Origin: Rudaeicoccus suwonensis
GTDB taxonomy: Bacteria > Actinomycetota > Actinomycetes > Actinomycetales > Dermatophilaceae
Direction of reading: 5' to 3'
DNA length: 64,000 nt
Assembly: GCF_007829035.1 (NCBI RefSeq)
Contig: NZ_VIVQ01000001.1
Location: 1,178,001-1,242,000, forward strand
A program made the position numbers and the translations under genes. Shown in pieces: positions 27,385-55,366 of the stretch (position 1 is its first letter; the number at the start of each line of letters is the position of its first letter). The notes under the pieces are model-generated. The model searched no databases, was not told the DNA's origin, and saw nothing but the letters and a program-made list of their open reading frames with translations.

Positions 27385-30300
27385 ATGTCGGCTCTTGTGA
27401 AGCGTCTGACCCCTCTGGAATGGCCGGTGTTCCGGCAACTCCGGTCAGGCGACTACCTCGGACGGGGTCCGGCGGTCGCCTCGCCGACCACGCGCGAGAC
27501 CACCAGTCGCAATGCCACGGCCGATCGGGTCGTGCGCAGCGTCTGTCCGTATTGCGCCGTCGGCTGTGGTCAGAAGGTCTACGTCAAGGACGAAAAGGTC
27601 GTTCAGATCGAGGGTGACCCGGACTCGCCGATCAGCAGGGGGCGGTTGTGCCCCAAGGGCTCGGCCAGCGAGCAGTTGGTCAACGCGCCGAACCGGCAGA
27701 TCAACGTGCTCTACCGGGCGCCGAAATCGACACAGTGGCAACGCCTTGACCGCGACAAGGCGATCGACATGATTGCCTCCCGCTTCGTCGCCTCCCGCCG
27801 CAACGGGTGGCAGGAGCGCGACGAGAAGGGCCGCCTGCTGCGTCGCACGATGGGCATCGCCAGCCTCGGCGGAGCCACGCTGGACAACGAAGAGAACTAC
27901 CTGATCAAGAAGCTGTTCACCGCGGCGGGCGCCATACAGATCGAGAACCAAGCGCGTATTTGACACTCCGCCACGGTTCCCAGTCTGGGAGCCTCCTTCG
28001 GGCGCGGCGGCGCCACCCAAACGCTGCAGGACATGGCCAACGCCGATTGCATCGTGCTGCAGGGCGGCAACATGGCAGAGGCGCACCCGGTGGGATTCCA
28101 GTGGGTCGCTGAGGCAAAAGCCCGTGGCGCCACCGTGATTCACGTCGATCCGCGTTTCACCCGCACCTCCGCCGTGGCGGACAAGCACATCGCCATACGT
28201 GCCGGGTCCGACGTCGTGCTGCTCGGTGCGCTCATCAATCACGTCATCAGCAACGAGTTGTGGTTCAAGGAGTACGTGCTGGCGTACACCAATGCCGCGA
28301 CGCTGGTGAGCGAGGACTTCCGCGACACCGAGGATCTCGACGGCCTGTTCTCCGGATTCGACCCGGAGACAGGCACATACGACACCAGTTCATGGTCGTA
28401 TGCCGACGCCCAGGGGGATCCGATCGGCAGCCCGGGGGACGAGCATGCCGAGTCCGAGGCGACCCATCGCGCGCCCGGTGATCATCACGGCAGCGGGGGC
28501 CCGTCCCTGGAGCACGCGGGCGTCGAGCGCGACGAGACGCTGCAGGACCCGCGCACCGTCTTCCAGATCCTCAAACGCCACTTCAGCCGGTACACCCCGC
28601 AGATGGTGAGTGACCTGTGCGGCATCGATGAACGCGACTTCGGCTTCCTGGCCGACGCGGTGACCAAGAACTCTGGTCGCGAACGCACCACCTGCTGGGG
28701 GTATGCGACCGGTTGGACCCAGCACAGCCTGGGTGCGCAGTTCATCCGCACCGCTGCGATCCTGCAGCTGCTGCTGGGCAACGTCGGTCGACCCGGCGGC
28801 GGGATCATGGCGCTGCGTGGACACGCCAGCATTCAGGGATCCACTGACATACCAACGCTTTTCAACCTTCTGCCGGGCTATCTGCCGATGCCGTCGGCCG
28901 CGCTGCACGACACGCTGCCGGACTATCTGGCCTCCATCGCGTCGAAGAAGCAGAAGGGTTTCTGGACCGAGGCCGACTCGTATTTCGTGAGTCTGATGAA
29001 GGCGTACTTCGGTGATGCGGCGCGAGAGGACAACTCCTGGGCGTTCGACTATCTGCCGCGGCTGAGCGGTCCACACGGCACCTACCAAACCGTGGTGGGC
29101 ATGCTGGAGGACCAGGTCGAGGGTTACTTCGTGCTCGGGCAGAATCCCGCCGTCGGTTCGGCGAATGCCCGTCAGCAGCGGGCCGGCCTGGCCCACCTGA
29201 AGTGGCTGGTCGTGCGTGACCTTCGCATGATCGAGACGGCGACCTTCTGGAAGGACAGCCCCGAAATCGCCTCTGGCGAAACACGATCCGAAGACATCGA
29301 CACCGAGGTCTTCTTCATGCCGGCGGCGACGCACGTGGAGAAGGCCGGCTCCTTCACCCAGACGCAGCGGCTGCTGCAGTGGCGGCACAAGGCGCTGAAT
29401 GCACCGGGGGAGTGCCAGAGCGAGCTCGACTTCTTCTACCACCTGGGCGTGCGCATCCGGCAACTGCTGGCTGACTCCACAGATGAGCGTGACCGCCCGC
29501 TGCTCGACCTCACCTGGGACTACGACCTCGACGACCGCGGCGACCCCGAGCCCGAGTCGGTGCTGGCCGAGATCAACGGCACGCAGTTGACGGGACCGGA
29601 TGCCGGTGAGGCGTTGTCGTCATACACGCAGTTGAAGGCGGACGGCAGCACGTCGAGTGGCTGCTGGATCTACACCGGGGTGTATGCCGGTGCTCACAAC
29701 CAGGCAGCCCGTCGCGTGCCGCACGGCGGCGACGGCGTGTCGCAGTCGCAGTGGGGCTGGGCGTGGCCGGCCGACCGTCGGATCCTCTACAACCGCGCGT
29801 CGGCCGACCCTGACGGCAAGCCCTGGAGCGAGCGCAAGAAGTACGTCTGGTGGGACGCCGACCAGGGCCGGTGGACCGGTGACGACGTGCCTGACTTCCC
29901 GGTCGACCGGGCACCACACGCACGCCCCGATCCCGACCTCGGCGGCCCTGCCGCACTCAGCGGCGACGACCCGTTCATCATGCAATCGGACGGAAAGGCA
30001 TGGCTTTTCGCGCCCAAGGGATTGGTCGACGGGCCGCTGCCGACGCACTACGAGCCACAGGAGTCACCAGTCGGCAACGCGTTGTACCGCCAGCAGCAGA
30101 GCCCGTCGCGGGTGGTCTTCCCGCGCACCGACAACCTCGACGCACCCAGCTTCGGTATGCCGGGGGCCGACGTCTACCCCTACGTGTTCACGACCTACCG
30201 GCTGACCGAGCACCACACCGCCGGCGGCATGAGCCGGTTCCTGCCGTATCTGTCGGAGTTGCAACCGGAGATGTTCTGCGAGGTGTCACCGGCGCTGGCC

Positions 30301-30690
30301 GCCGAACGCGGTCTGGTCAACGAGGGATGGGCGACTTTGATCTCACCTCGTGCGGTCATCGAGGCCCGCGTGCTGGTCACTGAACGGATGACGCCGCTGA
30401 CGATCAACGGCCGCCTTGTGCATCAGGTGGGCCTGCCCTATCACTGGGCCGTGGGCGACGAGGCGCTGATCACCGGCGATGCCGCGAACGACCTGCTCGG
30501 GGTCACCCTCGACCCGAACGTGCAGATCCAGGAATCCAAGGTGGCCTCGCTCGACATCATCGCCGGACGCCGTCCGCGGGGCGCCGCAGCGGATGAGTTG
30601 GTGCAGCAATACCGTCGCAGGGCAGGCGTCACGACGCAGACCGACAACGACCGGGTGACGCCGCTGCGCGACCAGGAAGGCGACAACTGA
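27385..30690 (+). CDS. fdhA: Formate dehydrogenase alpha subunit, selenocysteine-containing
   Basis: A single frame of 1101 codons with one internal TGA at 27961-27963 that encodes selenocysteine (residue 193), in IENQARI-U-HSATVPSLG. This matches the FdnG/FdhF active site and the frame stays intact to 30690. The 4Fe-4S cluster ligands are C54, C57, C61 and C89. Molybdopterin-binding segments follow (FGRGGATQTLQDMANADCIV, HVDPRFTRTSAVADKH). The protein oxidises formate at a Mo/W bis-MGD site. No Tat signal is seen at the N-terminus, so a cytoplasmic face is likely. ATG at 27385 follows GGAG with tight spacing. Automatic callers may split it into two genes at the TGA. Confidence 0.95.
27975..27993 (+). 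promoter_or_regulatory. SECIS-like hairpin for UGA recoding
   Basis: A stem-loop starts 12 bases after the TGA. Arms 27975-27982 (GGTTCCCA) and 27986-27993 (TGGGAGCC) pair over 8 bp with one T-G pair and a GTC loop. The spacing and the apical GUCU resemble the E. coli fdhF element (GGUUGCAGGUCUGCACC), which SelB binds. It lies inside the coding sequence. Confidence 0.65.
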
Positions 30691-31784
30691 TGGCGAGCCG
30701 GATCAATCCCTCGACCAGTCGGGTCTTCGGGCGACAGTTGAGCGGACCGACCGACCCCGCGGCGGATGCGCACTGGCCGGTGCATCACGAACGCAAGGGC
30801 TTCTTCACCGACACCTCGATCTGCATCGGCTGTAAAGCGTGCGAGGTCGCGTGCAAGGAGTGGAATCGCAACCCGCGAGATGGCGATCTCGAACTCACCG
30901 GCATGTCCTACGACAACACCGTGGCGCTGGGCGCGAGCACGTGGCGACACGTGGCCTTCATCGAGCAGGACGGCGAGCGGATCGCCGCCGCCCGCAAGTC
31001 CGGCGCGCGCCTGGTCGATCTCGGGATGCCGACGGTGCGCGCGCCGCGTCATACCGAACGGGGGAGTACGCCCGGCTCCGAAGGGGATGAAAGCAGAGTC
31101 AGCGCAACGGTTTTCGAGAATGTAGCACTTGACACGGCTCCGCCGGACACGCCTGAGTTCCGCTGGCTGATGGCATCGGACGTGTGCAAGCACTGCACCC
31201 ACGCCGGCTGTCTGGATGTCTGCCCGACGGGAGCGTTGTTTCGCACGGAGTTCGGCTCGGTGGTCGTGCAGGCCGACGTGTGCAACGGCTGCGGCACCTG
31301 CGTGGCCGGGTGCCCGTTCGGTGTCGTCGAGCGGCGCAGCGACGGCACCGCGGCACCCACAGCGCGCGACGGTGACAAGAAGGGCGAACAGCCGCAGGTG
31401 CCCAAGCGCGGCGTCGCGCAGAAGTGCACGTTGTGCTACGACCGGCTGCTGGATGACGAGACACCCGCTTGCGCCAAGACCTGCCCGACGACGTCCATCA
31501 AGTTCGGCGATCACACCGACCTGGTGCACGCGGCGCGCGAGCGCGTCGACCAGTTGCACGCGCAGGGGATGACGGAGGCGCGGCTCTACGGCGCCAACGA
31601 GTTGGACGGCGTGGGCGGCACCGGCGCGATGTTCCTGCTGCTGGACGAGCCCGAGGTCTACGGCCTGCCGCCGGACCCGCGGGTGCCGACGGCGGACCTG
31701 CCGGAGATGTTCCGGCGCGCCGGACTCGCGGCGATCGGCATGATCGCGGCCGCGTCGGTGGCCTTCCTCGGTGGTCGCCGATGA
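30690..31784 (+). CDS. fdhB: Formate dehydrogenase beta subunit (4Fe-4S dicluster)
   Basis: A 364-residue electron-transfer subunit with four 4Fe-4S motifs: CIGCKACEVACKEW, CKHCTHAGCLDVCPTG, CNGCGTCVAGCPFG and a CTLCYDR...CAKTCPT group. A hydrophobic helix near the C-terminus (about 343-361) could anchor it to the membrane, as FdnH is anchored. Its start overlaps the fdhA stop in TGATG, so translation is coupled. It carries electrons from the alpha subunit to the membrane subunit. Confidence 0.93.
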   Translation: MASRINPSTSRVFGRQLSGPTDPAADAHWPVHHERKGFFTDTSICIGCKACEVACKEWNRNPRDGDLELTGMSYDNTVALGASTWRHVAFIEQDGERIAAARKSGARLVDLGMPTVRAPRHTERGSTPGSEGDESRVSATVFENVALDTAPPDTPEFRWLMASDVCKHCTHAGCLDVCPTGALFRTEFGSVVVQADVCNGCGTCVAGCPFGVVERRSDGTAAPTARDGDKKGEQPQVPKRGVAQKCTLCYDRLLDDETPACAKTCPTTSIKFGDHTDLVHAARERVDQLHAQGMTEARLYGANELDGVGGTGAMFLLLDEPEVYGLPPDPRVPTADLPEMFRRAGLAAIGMIAAASVAFLGGRR

Positions 31785-32875
31785 CGCTGTCCGACTACGA
31801 CCAGTTCCGCCCGCCCGAGCCGCCGCGCAAGCGCCGCTTCGGCAAGGCGCAACGCAGCCGTCGGCGCACGTCCGAGGGCCGCGGTGACGGCTCGGTCGAG
31901 ATGCTGATGGTGCCGGAGGTCGAATTCACTTCGTACTACGGGCACAACGTGGTCAAGCCCCCACCGTGGGGGCCAGAGGTCGCGGCCTACCTGTTTCTCG
32001 GCGGGGTGGCCGGCGGCTCCGGATTGCTTGCGCTGGGGGCGCTGCTCACCGGGCGAAACCTGTTGCGCCGCAACGCTCGTCTGGGTGCGATGGCTGCGGT
32101 GGCAGTCGGCGGTGCCGCGTTGGTCAAGGACCTTGGTCGACCTGACCGGTTCTACAACATGCTGCGCACGATCAAGCTGACCTCGCCGATGAGCATCGGC
32201 TCGTGGATCCTCACGGCATTCAGCGTCAGTATGTCGCTGGCCGTCGCAGGCGAGCTGGATCGCTTGACCGGAGAACGGATTCCGCTGGGTCCGGTGCGCA
32301 AGGCGGTCGCGCTGATCGAAGGACCGGCCGGTTTCGCGGCGGCGGCCTTCGCACCACCGCTCGCGGCATACACGGCGGTCTTGTTGTCCGACACCGCGAA
32401 CCCCACCTGGAATGCCGCGCACCGTGATCTGCCGTTCGTCTTCGTCAGCTCGGCGAGCTTGGCGGCGGGCGGTCTGGCCATGATCACCACGCCGGTGCGT
32501 GAGACCAGGCCCGCGCGGGCGCTCGCGGTGATGGGCGTCGTCGGCGATGTGATGGCGACGAAATACATGGAGAGTCGGATGGACCCGCTCACGGTCGAGC
32601 CGCTGCACCACGGCCGACCCGGTCAGCTGATGGCCTGGAGTGAGCGGCTCGCCGTTGCCGGTGGCGTCGGCACCCTGCTGGTCGGGCGCCGGCGGATCCC
32701 GGCGGCGGTGTGCGGTGCGGCGCTGATGGGCGCATCGGCGCTGACGCGTTTCGGCGTGCTGGCTGCCGGGATCGCCTCCGCGAAGGATCCGAAGTACACC
32801 GTCGAACCACAGAAGAGACGTCTCGCTGCCCGACGGGCGGCCGGTGTCACCGAGGACTCGATCACCACGGCGTGA
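31781..32875 (+). CDS. nrfD: NrfD/PsrC-like membrane subunit
   Basis: A 364-residue polytopic protein. The N-terminal 65 residues are charged; then about eight or nine hydrophobic helices begin with VAAYLFLGGVAGGSGLLALG. The pattern fits NrfD/PsrC quinone-linked subunits, which here would pass formate electrons to menaquinone in place of a cytochrome b subunit. ATGA overlap with fdhB marks a three-gene operon. Confidence 0.87.
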   Translation: MTLSDYDQFRPPEPPRKRRFGKAQRSRRRTSEGRGDGSVEMLMVPEVEFTSYYGHNVVKPPPWGPEVAAYLFLGGVAGGSGLLALGALLTGRNLLRRNARLGAMAAVAVGGAALVKDLGRPDRFYNMLRTIKLTSPMSIGSWILTAFSVSMSLAVAGELDRLTGERIPLGPVRKAVALIEGPAGFAAAAFAPPLAAYTAVLLSDTANPTWNAAHRDLPFVFVSSASLAAGGLAMITTPVRETRPARALAVMGVVGDVMATKYMESRMDPLTVEPLHHGRPGQLMAWSERLAVAGGVGTLLVGRRRIPAAVCGAALMGASALTRFGVLAAGIASAKDPKYTVEPQKRRLAARRAAGVTEDSITTA

Positions 32876-33344
32876 GGCTCGGTCGGTCTCGAGCGCCGAA
32901 TCAGTTGGCACACATAGCAACTCGCCGAATCGGCGACTTCTGGTGGCCGTCAGAGGCAGCCCGTCGCCGTACTCGCCGAATCGGCGAGTTATGTGGGGCT
33001 GACGTGATGAGTGAGGCCAGTGAGTCTTGCGTGGCGGTGAAATCGACCGCATCGGCGACTTACTTCGTTAGCGAGATGCGAACTCGCGCCGAACTCGCCG
33101 GATCGGCGACGTATGTCGTGCATGCTGCCTCACCACCCAAGCGGAACTCGCCGAGTCGGCGACTTCTGGTGGCTGTCAGTTGTAACCCGTCGCCGTACTC
33201 GCCGAATCGGCGACTTCTCACATCCCACGCGGAGGCAGTCATGACGACCGGTTCCACTGGCTCGCCAGATCGGCGACTTTCGATACGCCGCAGGCGTTGG
33301 TCGTCTCCCCGTCGCCGCCAGGTCTGGCCCCGTGAGCCCGTCCG
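32876..33344. other. Non-coding region downstream of the fdh operon
   Basis: About 470 bp with long open frames only because of high GC. No frame looks like a protein. It is filled by the palindromic repeats listed separately. Confidence 0.6.
32919..33279 (+). repeat. Array of ~20-bp palindromic repeats at ~51-bp spacing
   Basis: Seven copies of a 20-bp imperfect palindrome ACTCGCCGAATCGGCGACTT lie on the same strand. Their right arms TCGGCGACTT begin at 32930, 32981, 33052, 33103, 33156, 33207 and 33270, giving intervals of 51, 71, 51, 53, 51 and 63 bp. The core is CGCCGA-A-TCGGCG. The 31-bp spacers after copies 1 and 5 are related to each other. No cas genes are near. The same right arm and a TCGACCG-x-ATCGGCGACTT form recur at 54.6-55.4 kb. 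Confidence 0.8.
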
Positions 33345-33592
33345 TCAGTTCACCCGGGCCAAGAAATCTGTTGGCAGGTCCTCGGGCGCCACCGAAATGA
33401 CGGATTTGTCGTTGTCGCCGACATGTTCGAACAGCGTGATCCGGGGCGAACTCAGGCACCACGAAGATCGGGTATGTCGGTCCGGCGTCGCGAAATGCGC
33501 GCATCTCATCGAGATGGTCGTTCTGGTAGAGCACCGTCCCGGCTCTGCAGTTTCTCCACCAAGGGCTTCGCCAACGCCAGTGAGGCGGCCGA
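33345..33592 (-). pseudogene. Remnant of a protein-coding gene broken by frameshifts
   Basis: On the minus strand, protein-like segments occur in three frames in succession: [16 protein letters not shown] (from about 33585), then [20 protein letters not shown]...FVVPEF, then [20 protein letters not shown]...LARVN and stop at 33345. Joining them needs a frameshift near 33536 and another near 33450. An in-frame stop precedes the first segment, so the 5' end is lost too. I do not recognise the family. Sequencing error is less likely because two shifts are needed. Confidence 0.45.
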
Positions 33593-33668
33593 CGGCTATC
33601 GGAAAGCCGGCCGGATGGAATCGCCCGTATGCCGGTCGCGCATGAGGCGTCACTGCCATCATGGCGCG

Positions 33669-34337
33669 ATGAGCTACGACCCGCTGAACAGCTTGACCCG
33701 CAAGGAGGGCCGCGCGAGCGCGGACCGCAGCACCCTGGACGCGCTGCTGGACGAGGTGTCGGTCGGAGTGCTGTCGACGGTGCTGGACGGTATGCCGTGG
33801 TCGGTGCCGATGCTGTTCGCCCGCGACGGTGACAACGTCATACTGCACGGGTCGACCGGAGCCGGTGCGTTGCGGCAGGTGACCGAAGGGGCACCCGCGG
33901 CCTTCACGGTGTACTCGCTGGACGGTTATGTCGTGGCGTACAACGCGTTCGAGTCGTCGGCGAACTACCGCAGCGCGGTGTTGCGCGGCACGCTCGTGCA
34001 CCTCAGCGGCGATTCCGCGGTCACCGGTCTCGAGCGACTGACCGACCGACTGTTTCCCGGTCGCACCGGCGAGGTCGTGCCGAGCACGCGCAAAGAACTC
34101 GCGGCGACGGTCTGCCTCGCGCTGCCGATCCGCGAAGGCTCCTGGCTCTACAGGGGGCGAGTCGGCGGGTCCGAGCCACCCGAGTATGACGATGCCACCG
34201 TGCCGGCAGCCCCGGTCTGGACCGGCATCGTGCCGTTGCGGCTCACGGCCGGCGAACCGCAACGCGATGAGTGGAATCACGACGACGTGCCGATTCCGGA
34301 GTCGGTGCGCGCGATTCAGCGGCACTACTCCCGCTGA
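33669..34337 (+). CDS. Pyridoxamine 5'-phosphate oxidase-like (split-barrel) protein
   Basis: A 222-residue flavin-binding split-barrel protein. The opening [20 protein letters not shown] and [20 protein letters not shown] match the family of FMN-dependent PPOX-like proteins (often called pyridoxamine 5'-phosphate oxidase family). True PPOX activity cannot be claimed; many members bind F420, FMN or heme. The ATG at 33669 was chosen because the conserved part starts there. It is convergent with selD. Confidence 0.85.
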
Positions 34338-34392
34338 AGCCGACCGCCGACCGCCAACCGCCCGCGGGCCGGCAAGCTCCGACGCGCAGGTC

Positions 34393-35406
34393 TCAGCGAA
34401 TGCTGATGCCGGCTTCTGCTGTCGTGTGGCCGATCACCGGATGACCCGGCACTTCGCCGACCACGAGCAAGCCACCCGACGTCTGCGCGTCGGCGAGCAG
34501 CAGCAGGTCGTTCTCGGTGATGGCTGCCGTCGTGGCGAGATGCGGACGCACCCAGTCCAGGTTGCGCCGAGTGCCGCCCGAGACGTAGCCGTCGCGCAGC
34601 GCCTCGCGCGCACCGTCGATCACCGGCACAGCGGCGATGTCGATCACCGCGCCGACGCCGGATGCGCGGCAGAGCTTGTGCAGGTGTCCGAGCAGGCCGA
34701 AGCCGGTCACGTCGGTGGCGCACCTCGCACCGGCGGCCAGTGCGGCCACGCTCGCATCGCGATTGAGGCCGGTCATGACCGCCAGCGCCTCCGGTGAGGT
34801 CTCGCCGGTCTGCTTGTGCCGGTTGTTCAGCAGGCCGGTGCCCAGGGGCTTGGTCAACGTGAGTGGCCGTCCGGGGACGGCGGCGTCGTTGCGCAGCAGT
34901 CGATCCGGGTGCGCGACCCCGGTCACCGCCATACCGTACTTGGGTTCCGGATCGTCGATCGTGTGGCCGCCGATGACCGGGCAGCCCGCCTCGCCGGCGA
35001 CGGCCAGCCCCCCGCGCAGCACCTCCGTCATCAGCTCCATCGGTAGCACTCCGCGCGGCCAGCCGACCAGGTTGATCGCGACGACCGGGGTGCCGCCCAT
35101 GGCGTAGATGTCCGACAAGGCGTTGGCTGCAGCGATGCGACCCCAGTCGAAGGCGTCGTCGACGACCGGCGTGAAGAAGTCGGCGGTCGACAGCAAAGCC
35201 AGGTCGTCGCGCAGTCGGATCGCCGCGGCGTCGTCACCGTCGTCGAGGCCGACCAGCACGTCAGGACCGGCTTGTCCGGTGAGACCCCGCACGGCGTCCT
35301 CAAGCTCGCCCGGCGGGATCTTGCACGCGCAACCACCCCCGTGCGCGTAGCTCGTCAGGCGCGCTGCAGCAGCCTCGGACGGCGGTGTCGACTGGGTCTC
35401 GGTCAC
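34393..35406 (-). CDS. selD: Selenide, water dikinase
   Basis: A 337-residue SelD that makes selenophosphate from selenide and ATP, the selenium donor for SelA. The catalytic motif is HGGGCACKIPP: the position that is selenocysteine in some bacteria is Cys here (C26, with C28 next to it). Glycine-rich ATP-binding stretches follow (LDDGDDAAAIRL, GARCATDVTGFGLLGHL). The start is GTG. It diverges from tRNA-Sec, selA and selB, leaving only 43 bp for both promoters. Confidence 0.95.
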   Translation of the reverse strand: MTETQSTPPSEAAAARLTSYAHGGGCACKIPPGELEDAVRGLTGQAGPDVLVGLDDGDDAAAIRLRDDLALLSTADFFTPVVDDAFDWGRIAAANALSDIYAMGGTPVVAINLVGWPRGVLPMELMTEVLRGGLAVAGEAGCPVIGGHTIDDPEPKYGMAVTGVAHPDRLLRNDAAVPGRPLTLTKPLGTGLLNNRHKQTGETSPEALAVMTGLNRDASVAALAAGARCATDVTGFGLLGHLHKLCRASGVGAVIDIAAVPVIDGAREALRDGYVSGGTRRNLDWVRPHLATTAAITENDLLLLADAQTSGGLLVVGEVPGHPVIGHTTAEAGISIR

Positions 35407-35449
35407 CCTCCGACCCTATGCCTGCCGAAGATTCGCTAGCTTGGCCTGC

Positions 35450-35545
35450 GGAAGCGTCAGGGTTCCTGGTGGGCCCCCCGGTCTTCAAAACCGGTGAGAC
35501 CGAGTATCTCGGCCTGGCGGGTTCGATTCCCGTCCGCTTCCGCCA
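35450..35545 (+). tRNA. selC: tRNA-Sec (anticodon TCA)
   Basis: A 96-nt tRNA including encoded CCA. The acceptor arm GGAAGCG pairs with CGCTTCC and an eighth position (T-C) is mismatched. The anticodon stem is CCGGT/ACCGG around CTTCAAA, so the anticodon at 35485-35487 is TCA, reading UGA. The variable arm is long (a CCGAG/CTCGG stem), as in tRNA-Sec. It ends 26 bases before selA and is probably co-transcribed with it. Confidence 0.95.
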
Positions 35546-35571
35546 ACAGCACTGTGGTGCAAGGAGATTCC

Positions 35572-36933
35572 GTGCCAATGACCGACCCGCGCAGGCGTAT
35601 CCCGCGGACCGACGACATCCTGCGGTCGGCCCCTGTCGAAGCCGCCCGGGCATCGGTCAGCGAGCAGGTGATCCGCGATGTCATCGCGGGTGTGCAGCAG
35701 CGTGCGCGCCACGGCGAGATAGCACCCGAGCAGGTCGAGTCAAGCGTCGCCGAAGCACTCGCACGTCGAGGGAGCATCGCTGCGCGACCGGTGCTCAACG
35801 CGACGGGTGTGGTCATCCACACCAACCTCGGCCGGGCGCCGCTGTCAGCTGCCGCTGTCGACGCCTTGGTCACCGCCAGCGGCTATGTCGACGTCGAGCT
35901 CGACCTCGCCACGGGTGTGCGGTCCAAGAGAGGTATGTCGGCGCGCGCCGCGCTGCTGCGGCATTGTCCGGCGGCGCAGGACGCGCTGATCGTCAACAAC
36001 GGCGCCGCCGCGTTGGTGCTCGCGACCACCACGTTCGCAGCCGGCGCCGAGGTGATCGTCAGCCGTGGCGAGCTCATCGAGATCGGCGCAGGCTTCCGGC
36101 TGACCGATCTCATCGAATCGACCGGCGCGCGGCTTCGCGAAATCGGCACCACCAACCGCACGCACCTGCGTGACTACGTCGACGCGATCGGTCCGCAGAC
36201 CGGATGCATCCTGAAAGTGCATCCGAGCAACTTCCGTGTCCAGGGCTTCACCGCCGAGGTGGATATCGCCCAATTGCGTTCAGCGGCAGACAGATCCGGC
36301 ATACCGCTCGTTGCGGACCTCGGCAGCGGACTGCTGCACCCAGACTCATTGTTGCCCGACGAGCCCGATGCGGCGTCGGCTCTGAGGGCCGGCGCCGACA
36401 TCGTGACCGCCAGTGGGGACAAACTGCTCGGCGGTCCACAGGCGGGTCTGGTGCTCGGGCGCGCCGACCTCGTCGAACGTATGGCGCGGCACCCGTTGGC
36501 TCGGGCCGTGCGCGCGGACAAGCTCGCGCTCGCCGCTCTCGAAGCGACCCTCGATGGCCCGAGCACGCCGGTCGAGAGTGCGCTGCACGCCGACGCGGGC
36601 CGGATGGAAGAACGCGCCCGCCGACTTGCCGCAGCAATCGATGCCGAGGTGGTCACTCATGACGGCAGGGTCGGGGGCGGGGGAGCACCGGGCGTGCCGC
36701 TGCCTGGCTGGGCGGTTGCGATCACTGCCGGCGGCGCCCCGCCGACCGAGCTGGCGCGGCGGTTGCGCACCGGAGACCCAGCGGTGCTGCCGCGCCTGCA
36801 CGAGGGCGTGCTGCTGCTGGATCTGCGCTGCATTCCCGAAGCCGACGACGATCGGCTTGCTGTTGCCGTCCGCGACGCTCTGACGACTCTGGTGCCGAAC
36901 GATGGTGAGCCCGCCGTGACACCGGAGCACTGA
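35572..36933 (+). CDS. selA: L-seryl-tRNA(Sec) selenium transferase
   Basis: A 453-residue PLP enzyme converting seryl-tRNA(Sec) to selenocysteinyl-tRNA(Sec). The PLP lysine is K284 in TASGDKLLGGPQAG. Other conserved segments are LNATGVVIHTNLGRAPLS and VKVHPSNFRVQGF-like LKVHPSNFRV. AAGGAG at 35561-35566 is 5 bases before the GTG at 35572 and 11 before an ATG at 35578; I prefer the GTG. It is followed by selB after 3 bp. Confidence 0.96.
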   Translation: MPMTDPRRRIPRTDDILRSAPVEAARASVSEQVIRDVIAGVQQRARHGEIAPEQVESSVAEALARRGSIAARPVLNATGVVIHTNLGRAPLSAAAVDALVTASGYVDVELDLATGVRSKRGMSARAALLRHCPAAQDALIVNNGAAALVLATTTFAAGAEVIVSRGELIEIGAGFRLTDLIESTGARLREIGTTNRTHLRDYVDAIGPQTGCILKVHPSNFRVQGFTAEVDIAQLRSAADRSGIPLVADLGSGLLHPDSLLPDEPDAASALRAGADIVTASGDKLLGGPQAGLVLGRADLVERMARHPLARAVRADKLALAALEATLDGPSTPVESALHADAGRMEERARRLAAAIDAEVVTHDGRVGGGGAPGVPLPGWAVAITAGGAPPTELARRLRTGDPAVLPRLHEGVLLLDLRCIPEADDDRLAVAVRDALTTLVPNDGEPAVTPEH

Positions 36934-36936
36934 ACC

Positions 36937-38727
36937 GTGCACGTCATCGCGACCGCCGGTCATGTCGATCACGGCAAGAGCACCCTCGTGCGCGCGCTCA
37001 CCGGCACCGAGCCCGACCGTTGGGCCGAGGAGCAACGGCGTGGGCTGACCATCGACCTCGGATTCGCTTGGCTGACAACGCCATCCGGACGAGAAGCTGC
37101 CTTCGTCGACGTCCCCGGACACGAGCGCTTCATCGGCAACATGCTCGCCGGACTGGGCCCGGTGCCAGTCGTGTGTTTCATTGTCGCGGCCGACGAGGGC
37201 TGGCGGGCCCAGTCGGCCGAGCACGCTGACGCGATCGCGGCGCTCGGCATACAGCACGGGTTGGTCGTGATCAGCCGCTGCGATCTGGCGCCCGACCGCG
37301 TCACCGAGGTCATGGCTGAGGCGCGTGCCGGGCTGACGCACACGGGACTGCGGGATGCGCCGGTCGTGGGCGTCTCCGCGGTGACCGGGACCGGCATGGA
37401 TGACCTTCGGAGGACGCTGGATCAGGTGCTTGCCAGGGTGCCGCGGCCCGCAGTGGACGACCGCGTACGCATGTGGCTGGATCGTTCTTTCTCGATCAAC
37501 GGTGCCGGCACCGTCGTGACCGGCACCCTCGCGGGTGGCACGCTCGCGGTCGGTCAGCAACTGGACCTGGCCTCTGGTGAGCACACCTATGCCGTGACGA
37601 TTCGCGGCCTCCAGCGCCATGGCCAGGCGCACGATCGGGTCGGTCCGGTGAGCAGAGTTGCCGTCAATCTCCGCGGTCGAGGCGCAACGGAGATCCATCG
37701 TGGTGATGTCCTGATCTCGCCCGGGGCCTGGCCTTGGACAGCGACGGTCGACGTGCGCCGAGTCAGCGGGGTGCCGCTGGACGAGGTGCCCGTCGAGGTC
37801 ATCGCACACGTCGGAACTGCAGCCATACCAGGCAGATTGCGATCATTCACCGATCGGCACGCCCGGTTGACGTTCACGTGGCCGGTGCCGGTGGTGCACG
37901 CCGACCGCATCGTGCTGCGGCATCCCGGATCCCGGCGTGTGCTGGGCGGTGTGCAGGTGGCAGACGCAGACCCCCCGGCGCTCGGCCGACGCGGCGATGC
38001 CGCAAGGCGAGGCCAGGTGCTGGCCCAGCTACCTGCAGCGGGGGACCTCGGCTACGAGGTGCGACGGCGCGGCGCGGTCAGGCAGGCACACCTGGTCCGG
38101 CTGAATCTCACTGCGCCGCACGCAGATCCACCCGACGGGATCCGCGCGGTCGGGGAGTGGTGGATCGACGGCACGGTCTTTGCCGCCTGGGTGGACCGCC
38201 TGCGCGACGTGGTTGCCCAGCACCATACCGAGCAGCCGTTGTCCGGCGGTCTCACCACGTCGGCAGTACGTGACCGGCTCGGCATGCCCGACACTGCACT
38301 CGTGCCGGAGGTCGCTGCTGTTGCCGGCTTGCGGCTCAGCGACGGCTTGATCAGCGACCCGGCTCGCGAGGCGTCACTCGGACGCGCCGAGCCTGGCATC
38401 ACTGCCATCGAGGCGCGGCTGACGGCCCGACCGTTCGATGCCCCGGAGACGGACGACCTGATAGCGCTCGGCATCGGTGCACGCGAACTGGCGGCGGCCG
38501 AACGCCTCGGCCGCCTTCTGCGCCTCGACGACGGCGTGGTGCTGCTGCCGAGCACGCCCGCGCTGGCGATGCGCGAACTCAGCCGGCTTCCCCAGCCGTT
38601 CACGACCAGTGAGGCACGACAGGCGCTTTCGACCACACGGCGCATCGTCATACCGTTGCTGGAGCACCTCGACCGACGCGGCTGGACCAGACGCACCGAC
38701 GCGCAGCACCGTGTCGTCGTGCGCTGA
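36937..38727 (+). CDS. selB: Selenocysteine-specific elongation factor SelB
   Basis: A 596-residue GTPase that delivers selenocysteinyl-tRNA to UGA codons next to a SECIS hairpin. The G1 motif GHVDHGKST follows the GTG start, with DVPGHERFIGNM as switch II. After the EF-Tu-like domains, the C-terminal quarter holds winged-helix domains for SECIS binding (TSEARQALSTTRRIVIPLLE). It is 3 bp after selA, so the two are co-translated. Its target here should be the fdhA hairpin. Confidence 0.96.
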   Translation: MHVIATAGHVDHGKSTLVRALTGTEPDRWAEEQRRGLTIDLGFAWLTTPSGREAAFVDVPGHERFIGNMLAGLGPVPVVCFIVAADEGWRAQSAEHADAIAALGIQHGLVVISRCDLAPDRVTEVMAEARAGLTHTGLRDAPVVGVSAVTGTGMDDLRRTLDQVLARVPRPAVDDRVRMWLDRSFSINGAGTVVTGTLAGGTLAVGQQLDLASGEHTYAVTIRGLQRHGQAHDRVGPVSRVAVNLRGRGATEIHRGDVLISPGAWPWTATVDVRRVSGVPLDEVPVEVIAHVGTAAIPGRLRSFTDRHARLTFTWPVPVVHADRIVLRHPGSRRVLGGVQVADADPPALGRRGDAARRGQVLAQLPAAGDLGYEVRRRGAVRQAHLVRLNLTAPHADPPDGIRAVGEWWIDGTVFAAWVDRLRDVVAQHHTEQPLSGGLTTSAVRDRLGMPDTALVPEVAAVAGLRLSDGLISDPAREASLGRAEPGITAIEARLTARPFDAPETDDLIALGIGARELAAAERLGRLLRLDDGVVLLPSTPALAMRELSRLPQPFTTSEARQALSTTRRIVIPLLEHLDRRGWTRRTDAQHRVVVR

Positions 38728-54393: not shown

Positions 54394-54584
54394 ATTGGCT
54401 CGCTCCGTGGAAAACCATACCCCCTCGCCGGGTGGAGTCACGGGGCGCGGGGAGCGCGATCGTGGCGCGCGCGACCGTGGCGAGCAGCAGGCACCGGGCA
54501 CCGGACCTCGCGGGCTGAGCCTCGGGTGCGGGCCAACGGCGGATGCGCTGTATGCCGCACCGGGTCGGTCGCCTGGTCCAGACA

Positions 54585-55366
54585 AACTCGCCGTATCGGC
54601 GACTTTCGTGTGACCGCTGGTACCAATGGGTCTTGTGATGTATATGAGGCGGGAAGGTCGACCGAATCGGCGACTTTCGTGCTCCGCAATCTGGTGACGT
54701 GTGTCGGGTCGTCCGTCCTGCGTGCAGTTTCTCGCTGTGTCGGCGTGTGGATTGGCGCTGGTCGTGAGAATGTCGGTCTTTGCCGGTTCCGGGGTGTGCT
54801 GCGCGCACGAGATGTCGATCTTTACCGGTTCCCGGGTGTGCTGCGCGCACGAGATGTCGATCTTTACCGGTTCCCGGGTGTGCTGCGCGCACGAGATGTC
54901 GATCTTTACCGGTTCCCGCTAGCGGTTCCGACCAATGCCGACATCTCGTGGCTCATGGCCTTCGTCCGCAGTGGCCAGACCAACGCGCGTCGCCGCGTCG
55001 GCGACTTTCGTGTGACTGCTGATGCCAATGGGGCTTGTGATGTACATGAGGTGGGAAGTTCGACCGGATCGGCGACTTTCGTGCTCCGCAACCTGGTGAC
55101 GTGTGTCGGGTGGCCCGTCCTGCGTGCAGTTTCTCGCTGCGTCGGCGTGTGGACTGGCGCTGGTCGTGAGATGTCAATCTTCGCCGGTTCCGGGGTGTGC
55201 TGCGCGCACGAGATGTCGGTCTTTGCCAGCTCCCGCTCAAGTCGCGCTTACGAGATGTCGGTCTTTGCCGGTTCCCGCTGGCGGTTCCGACCAATGCCGA
55301 CATCTCGTGGCCCATGGCCTTCGTCCGCAGTGGCCAGACCAACGCGTGCCGCCGCATCGGCGACTT
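54585..55366 (+). repeat. Two ~360-400-bp direct repeats with palindromic TCGGCGACTT arms
   Basis: A block starting at 54596 recurs at 54998 (402 bp later) and ends at a third TCGGCGACTT at 55357. Each copy starts TCGGCGACTTTCGTGTGAC and has a second arm 71 bp later (54667 and 55069). Each ends with GCCGACATCTCGTGG and CGCAGTGGCCAGACCAACGCG. The first copy carries an extra 42-bp tandem repeat. The 1.28-kb gap between aceB and the MFS gene (54351-55626) holds no gene that I can support; the open frames through it are low complexity and follow the repeats. Confidence 0.8.
54769..54918 (+). repeat. 42-bp tandem repeat
   Basis: Units begin at 54769 (diverged), 54811, 54853 and 54895 (partial), exactly 42 bp apart, and read GATGTCGATCTTTACCGGTT followed by CCCGGGTGTGCTGCGCGCACGA. 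The GAGATGTCGG core is repeated in inverted form as GCCGACATCTCGTG at 54937-54950, so the array can fold back on itself. The second large copy has two or three diverged units (near 55210 and 55251). Confidence 0.75.

What the first reader, a model, noticed from the sequence alone, without database searches (positions are those of the whole stretch)
32919..33279. Regularly spaced palindromic repeats, apparently undescribed
Seven palindromes of 20 bp repeat at about 51 bp (five helical turns), with two longer intervals of 71 and 63 bp. All are in the same orientation. The spacers after copies 1 and 5 are related. The lattice looks like a protein-binding array or a structured RNA. Together with the block at 54.6 kb it makes a dispersed non-coding family.
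Basis: partly seen in the sequence, partly recalled or inferred. Interest (0 to 1): 0.65.

Follow-up and report, generated by a model that had tools for sequence, protein, structure and literature searches.

The report
Phased intergenic DNA-site arrays, one genome
One bacterial genome carries a large family of short palindromic DNA sites, strung between ordinary genes at intervals that step by about ten bases and built around a repeated two-site module, which looks like a landing platform for an unknown DNA-binding protein.

Summary
The array is real and one of many in this genome: in the stretches I fetched, 137 boxes form 36 clusters, and 25 of 30 multi-box clusters have one orientation. Two features were missed. 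(1) The 71-bp interval is not a longer gap: copies 2 and 3 form a composite element, box L, five 9-bp TGNGRC-NNN units, then a distinct box R (left arm TCGACCG). A search found 42 near-full-length copies, 39 without net indel, although the 44 bp inside average only 55% identity. (2) Box intervals bunch near 40, 50, 60 and 71 bp; 33 non-redundant intervals other than 71 keep a period of about 10 bp, as expected for proteins on one face of DNA. In 57 relatives nothing exceeds 22 bits. RNA structure has no support. REP/BIME and IS21-end membership were tested and not met. None of 29 nearby proteins scanned is a transposase. The binding protein is unknown. Bacillaceae and a few other bacteria have phased arrays with the same 11-bp core; shared ancestry is unproven. 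Most likely a REP-like family of protein-binding arrays, so far seen in one genome.

The parts
32920..32939 (+). box 1, ACTCGCCGAATCGGCGACTT
32968..33063 (+). composite element: box L, five 9-bp units, box R
   Evidence: hit G000:C1:1210968-1211063
32971..32990 (+). box 2 = box L of the composite element
32994..33038 (+). five 9-bp TGNGRC-NNN units between box L and box R
   Evidence: alignment columns 29-73
33042..33061 (+). box 3 = box R (left arm TCGACCG)
33093..33112 (+). box 4
33146..33165 (+). box 5 (33145-33216 is a 90% copy of 32919-32990)
33197..33216 (+). box 6
33260..33279 (+). box 7, imperfect left arm
54584..54680 (+). second composite element
   Evidence: hit G000:C1:1232584-1232680
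54987..55082 (+). third composite element, in a 92% copy of the stretch that holds the second
   Evidence: hit G000:C1:1232987-1233082
55352..55366 (+). single box at the end of the 54.6-kb block

Best explanation
A family of extragenic DNA-binding arrays, so far seen in one genome. Shown: boxes TCGCCGNATCGGCGACTT lie mostly between ordinary genes, mostly in one direction within a cluster, at intervals that step by about 10 bp, and around a module of two unlike boxes 71 bp apart with five 9-bp TGNGRC units between them. Inferred: a dimeric sequence-specific protein binds each palindromic box; boxes on one face of the helix let neighbouring dimers touch; the 9-bp units are contacted by the same or a partner protein, so that assembly starts on the two-box module and extends to single boxes. 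The likely outcome is local DNA compaction or separation of neighbouring transcription units. The family grew by local duplication and copying within the genome, as REP-like repeats do, with no dedicated transposase recognised.
For: Interval quantisation: 33 non-redundant intervals other than 71 give R=0.64 at period 10.0; 0 of 2000 random sets reach the observed value. Rigid module: 39 of 42 near-full-length copies without net indel, while the inner 44 bp of 23 non-redundant copies average 55% identity, range 36-77%. Nine-base periodicity of conservation: p=0.00025 at lag 9, 0.0067 over lags 3-15. One orientation in 25 of 30 multi-box clusters. 25 of 30 clusters overlap no predicted gene. No covariation for an RNA.
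Against: No binding protein is known. The best period is 9.8-10.0 bp, not 10.5, and intervals of one locus are not fully independent. The model was trained on pairs exactly 71 bp apart and its hit list stopped at 69, so the length figure leans towards no indel; a weaker 23.9-bit match spans model positions 5-100 in only 66 bases. Nine loci share longer repeats and five boxes abut an insertion-sequence-like end, which fits a mobile origin. Five of 30 clusters touch or overlap a predicted gene.
Confidence: 0.5

Rival explanations
1. Relics of a non-autonomous mobile element: the boxes are, or were, transposase-binding sites at multi-site transposon ends, spread in trans by an enzyme now lost or not recognised; the phasing reflects the old transposase.
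For: Nine loci share stretches of about 150-725 bp at 78-98% identity that contain boxes; in five loci (L052, L054, L060, L061, L067) a box directly abuts AGAGATYGCGCGGGTAGGT, which by eye is the end of a decayed insertion sequence. Transposon ends with several phased sites are known from IS21 and Tn7-like elements (recalled).
Against: No Y1 transposase in the genome. The two IS21 copies have other ends, and 29 IS21 loci of relatives hold no box array, although those loci seldom reach the far IS end. None of 29 proteins scanned near arrays or in the window is a transposase. The modules are diverged yet keep their length.
Confidence: 0.3
2. Neutral repeats: the boxes spread by slippage and recombination and carry no function.
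For: Clear local tandem duplications, e.g. 41-bp and 26-bp units in L059 and the duplicated 72 bp in the window.
Against: Does not by itself explain a constant module length with a diverged interior or a common ~10-bp lattice across unlike spacers.
Confidence: 0.12
3. A transcribed structured RNA or RNA-protein sponge with 9-nt repeats.
For: Box L and box R can pair in a consensus fold; 9-nt units could bind a modular RNA-binding protein.
Against: None of 8 consensus pairs shows a two-sided change (the boxes hardly vary, so this is lack of support rather than disproof); no Rfam match but two tRNAs in the window; no sigma-70-like or terminator-like site at 32.7-33.8 kb (few are expected by chance in such a stretch).
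Confidence: 0.06

Closest known systems
REP / BIME elements with RAYT transposases (PMC2817692, passages seen)
   Same: High copy number, extragenic, palindromic, clustered, species-specific.
   Different: No Y1 transposase in the genome, no GTAG-type head next to the palindrome, direct rather than alternating orientation, and a 71-bp two-box module with 9-bp units.
IS21-type transposon ends with several repeated binding sites (recalled)
   Same: Repeated sites at intervals of whole helical turns.
   Different: IS21 copies of this genome and of relatives carry other end sequences; arrays stand alone.
Phased intergenic arrays with the core ATCRGCGACTT in Bacillaceae and a few other bacteria
   Same: Same 11-bp core, direct orientation, short regular intervals (20-21 or 41-42 bp); 12 of 14 checked lie outside an ORF of 130 aa or more.
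   Different: Other flanks, mostly no palindrome, no 71-bp module; common origin not shown and chance sharing of an 11-mer not excluded.
Dispersed palindromic sites of chromosome proteins (Noc, SlmA, MatP; recalled)
   Same: Many short palindromes spread over a chromosome, bound by a dimer.
   Different: Those are mostly single sites; here clusters between genes, with a composite module and helical phasing.

Membership tests
REP/BIME | Abundant extragenic palindromes in clusters | tested here: met
REP/BIME | RAYT (Y1) transposase gene in a carrier genome | tested here: not met
   PF01797, 0 matches; found in 5 of 14 control genomes
REP/BIME | GT(A/G)G head next to the palindrome | tested here: not met
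   flanks AAC and CTTATG in the consensus
REP/BIME | Alternating orientation within BIMEs | tested here: not met
   25 of 30 multi-box clusters in one orientation
IS21 ends | Motif at the ends of IS21 elements | tested here: not met
   two own copies; 29 loci of relatives, no array, 5 scattered single core matches; 20 loci of array-bearing genomes, no array. Far ends often lie outside these loci.
Structured RNA | Covarying base pairs | tested here: not met
   0 of 8 pairs with two-sided change; boxes nearly invariant
Structured RNA | Match to a described family | tested here: not met
   only two tRNAs in the window
Intrinsic terminator | GC-rich stem followed by a T run | tested here: not met
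   0 found at 32.7-33.8 kb (mean 0.4 in shuffles)
CRISPR array | Uniform spacer length | tested here: not met
   intervals from 26 to 100 bp
CRISPR array | cas genes nearby | not tested
   no cas search was run; no Cas family among the 29 proteins scanned
Protein-binding array | Sites in helical phase | tested here: met
   with the limits stated there
Protein-binding array | A protein binds the site | not testable with these tools
   needs a bench assay

The most novel reading that the evidence does not exclude
A dedicated nucleoprotein system: a protein with modular recognition reads the five 9-bp units between two palindromic anchors 71 bp apart, starts assembly there, and extends along helically phased single boxes; because phased intergenic arrays with the same 11-bp core also occur in Bacillaceae, Bacteroidota and Bifidobacterium, a transferable chromosome-organising or genome-defence factor may stand behind a class of intergenic arrays so far passed over as repeats.
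Probability: 0.12. Interest if true: 0.75.

Novelty: new variant of a known kind. Interest (0 to 1): 0.45.

Why it matters
Intergenic repeats in bacteria are often filed as inert or selfish. This family shows two signs of constraint on DNA geometry (a module of fixed length with a diverged interior, and box intervals in steps of about 10 bp), so it offers a direct bait for an unknown DNA-binding protein and a way to ask what arrays between housekeeping genes do. If the Bacillaceae arrays share the binder, the question widens to several phyla.

Tried and rejected
REP/RAYT: no Y1 transposase in the genome, no GTAG-type head. IS21 ends: an idea from recall, prompted by the Bacillus-type arrays. 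The two own IS21 copies have one single 1-mismatch core each, inside the element, and other ends; 29 IS21 loci of relatives have no array, 5 scattered 1-mismatch cores and 5 weak family-B matches; 20 IS21-like loci from 7 of 9 array-bearing genomes, only one above the family cut-off, have no array. These loci seldom reach the far IS end, so the test is not complete. Structured RNA: no covariation. Coding repeat: considered because the 9-bp unit is three codons; set aside by eye because TGA stops occur freely in the frame that opens with ATG. Replication polarity: GC skew from 20 sampled 3-kb stretches against the orientations shows both orientations on both arms; a rough test. Plasmids and phages: one weak match in Streptomyces, none, weak Pseudomonas phage matches; the weak plasmid match (E=0.4) lies among genes that look like Bacillus chromosome. 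Viral contigs: none for the module start or for family B; 5 for the core pair, not arrays. Papers: 15-mer in 0 papers; 11-mer in 8 papers, 7 listed, titles unrelated; topical searches seen as listings only, 302 papers of which 15 listed, 9 listed, 8 of 11 listed, 0. I saw passages of PMC2817692 and one of PMC3848588. Cross-phylum sharing: the collection scan (36 stretches) was made for this very core and no shuffled-motif control could be run; 11 of the 36 are from 5 Bacillaceae-type genomes, and several others look by eye like coding repeats or isolated pairs.

Full report
Observation. Seven boxes are present at the stated place with intervals 51, 71, 51, 53, 51 and 63 bp. The 20-mer with up to 3 mismatches gives 10 matches at 7 sites in the window, against a mean of 0.01 in shuffles and 0 of 100 shuffles with as many. 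Box 3 is not a palindrome and box 7 is imperfect; boxes 5 and 6 with their spacer are a 90% copy of boxes 1 and 2. The array lies between a formate dehydrogenase operon (alpha subunit matching NCBIfam formate_DH_Act, an Fe-S subunit, a weak NrfD match ending at 32875) and a + strand gene (my start 33669) without an NCBIfam match; selD, tRNA-Sec, selA and selB follow.

Genome-wide family. The window is G000:C1:1178001-1242000 of a 3.83-Mb assembly. The 16-mer core with up to 2 mismatches has 77 forward and 89 reverse hits, against 1 and 0 for the reversed control; only the first 100 or so places were listed. I fetched stretches around listed places. In 34 of these loci plus the window, a strict box pattern finds 137 boxes in 36 clusters; 30 clusters have two or more boxes and 25 of those have one orientation. 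Three loci gave no box. At least one counted box, the last in L066, is probably a stray coding match; the mixed clusters in L052, L054 and L060 contain a fully symmetric variant whose direction is arbitrary. By a home-made gene of 30 clusters overlap no predicted gene; L043 and L060 overlap one by 31-36 bp, and in L061, L065 and L066 a predicted gene reaches into the cluster. For 20 clusters with both neighbours within about 800 bp I count 9 between convergent, 5 between divergent and 6 between co-directional genes (with my own reading of the window array); no null was computed. Neighbours are ordinary: 8 of 10 proteins had a Pfam family (PAP2, LPG synthase region, GH25, M20 peptidase, LeuA-like, NAD ligase, GNAT/SCP2, TPR), 9 of 10 an NCBIfam one (an oxidoreductase, HemE, TatD, ArgS, GalE, SmpB, Lgt, glutamate synthase, PhoH2), and the 54.6-kb block lies between malate synthase and an MFS exporter.

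Composite element. In the first 30 loci plus the window, 27 box pairs sit exactly 71 bp apart and align without gaps. Consensus: AACTCGCCGNATCGGCGACTTATGTGTGACNNNTGNGNCNNNTGNGNCNNNTGNGNCNNGTGAGGCGNNNANATCGACCGCATCGGCGACTTATG. Box L is a palindrome; box R has the left arm TCGACCG. Between them run five 9-bp units, TGNGRC-NNN. In 23 non-redundant copies the column information has an autocorrelation of 0.41 at lag 9 (p=0.00025 for that lag, 0.0067 for the best of lags 3-15); the inner 44 bp average 55% identity (36-77%), and the 18 columns picked as least conserved are 29% identical. A sequence-only model finds 42 copies at 46 bits or more, each covering at least 91 model positions except where shortened; by comparing spans in that table 39 have no net indel, two related copies have +1 and one has -12. 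The list stopped at 69 scored places and the model was trained on 71-bp pairs, so these figures lean that way; a weaker match (23.9 bits) spans positions 5-100 in only 66 bases. Of 57 relatives 16 have one or two weak matches at E up to 0.01, the best 22.4 bits, which I take as chance.

Spacing. Among 71 direct neighbour intervals of up to 110 bp, 18 are 40-41, 11 are 50-51, 6 are 59-63 and 25 are 71. After removal of similar spacers 43 remain (R=0.72 at period 10.0). Without the ten 71s, 33 remain: R=0.64 at 10.0, best period 9.8, and 0 of 2000 random sets (uniform 26-100 bp) reach the observed value. The period is below 10.5, and intervals of one locus are not fully independent. I read this as sites kept on one face of the helix.

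RNA reading. Rfam finds only two tRNAs in the window. The consensus fold of the 27 copies pairs box L with box R in 8 pairs, none with a two-sided change; as the boxes hardly vary, this is lack of support rather than disproof. No terminator-like or sigma-70-like site was found at 32.7-33.8 kb.

Mobile-element reading. No Y1 transposase. Two near-identical IS21 copies exist with other ends. 29 IS21 loci of relatives, 107 kb, hold no array. Nine loci (L045, L048, L050, L052, L054, L058, L060, L061, L071) share stretches of about 150-725 bp at 78-98% identity that contain a box, and in five loci (L052, L054, L060, L061, L067) a box abuts AGAGATYGCGCGGGTAGGT, by eye the end of a decayed insertion sequence. 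Mobile DNA has thus used or carried boxes at some places, but the window array shows no such element.

Companion family B. The 54.6-kb block also has 42-bp direct repeats of CACGAGATGTCGATCTTTRCCGG that end in an inverted pair. The 20-mer with up to 3 mismatches has 27 matches in this genome, 21 of them by my count within a few hundred bases of a box cluster. GAGATGTC-N34-GAGATGTC occurs 34 times here and once each in 2 of the other 296 genomes of the order sampled.

Elsewhere. The 18-mer at up to 1 mismatch: 69 hits here, 1 in 1 of 96 relatives. Two exact 11-bp cores 19-49 bp apart: only this genome among 396 of the phylum sample. A scan of the 84,980-species collection for two cores 41-71 bp apart gave 36 stretches; 11 come from five Bacillaceae-type genomes with 20-21-bp units, others from Cryptobacteroides (21 bp) and Bifidobacterium mongoliense (42 bp), and several look like coding repeats. 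Of 14 such arrays checked, 2 overlap an ORF of 130 aa or more (the neighbours were read as translations, not run through family libraries). In the family of one of these genomes 6 of 193 genomes have such arrays, three of them already known from the scan, and the reversed control is 0. This is a lead: the scan was made for this core and no shuffled-motif control could be run.

Verdict. A real and abundant family of extragenic arrays, so far seen in one genome, with signs of constraint on DNA geometry. Best reading: protein-binding array (0.5); next, relics of transposase-binding sites (0.3). It works like interspersed extragenic repeats and like arrays of operator sites, but fails tested defining features of REP/BIME and of IS21 ends, so I file it as a new variant of interspersed extragenic repeats.

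Noticed in passing
window 54770-54950 and 55168-55310; L049, L051, L053, L059, L066, L070, L232, L233, L234: A second repeat family, B (GAGATGTC...), in 42-bp direct repeats that often end in an inverted pair about 47 bp apart; it shares many intergenic regions with the boxes and also stands alone.
   Followed up: partly
L052, L054, L058, L060, L061, L067, L071: Decayed insertion-sequence-like elements with ends AGAGATYGCGCGGGTAGGT; in five loci a box directly abuts the end, as if the box were a target or part of the element. Not run through family libraries.
   Followed up: partly
L099, L101, L103, L108, L083, L090, L092 and others: Bacillaceae genomes carry intergenic direct arrays of ATATATCRGCGACTT units at 20-21 bp, several per genome.
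   Followed up: partly
window 28033-38727: A selenium cluster: formate dehydrogenase operon, selD, tRNA-Sec, selA, selB. The alpha-subunit ORF starts at profile position 210, with more coding sequence upstream to be expected, which fits an in-frame Sec codon or an upstream part.
   Followed up: no
L142 (NZ_CP100662.1, 9646-17672): A record named as a Pseudomonas fluorescens plasmid carries glgA, glgP, a sporulation gene and a menaquinone gene and looks like Bacillus chromosome; possible contamination.
   Followed up: no
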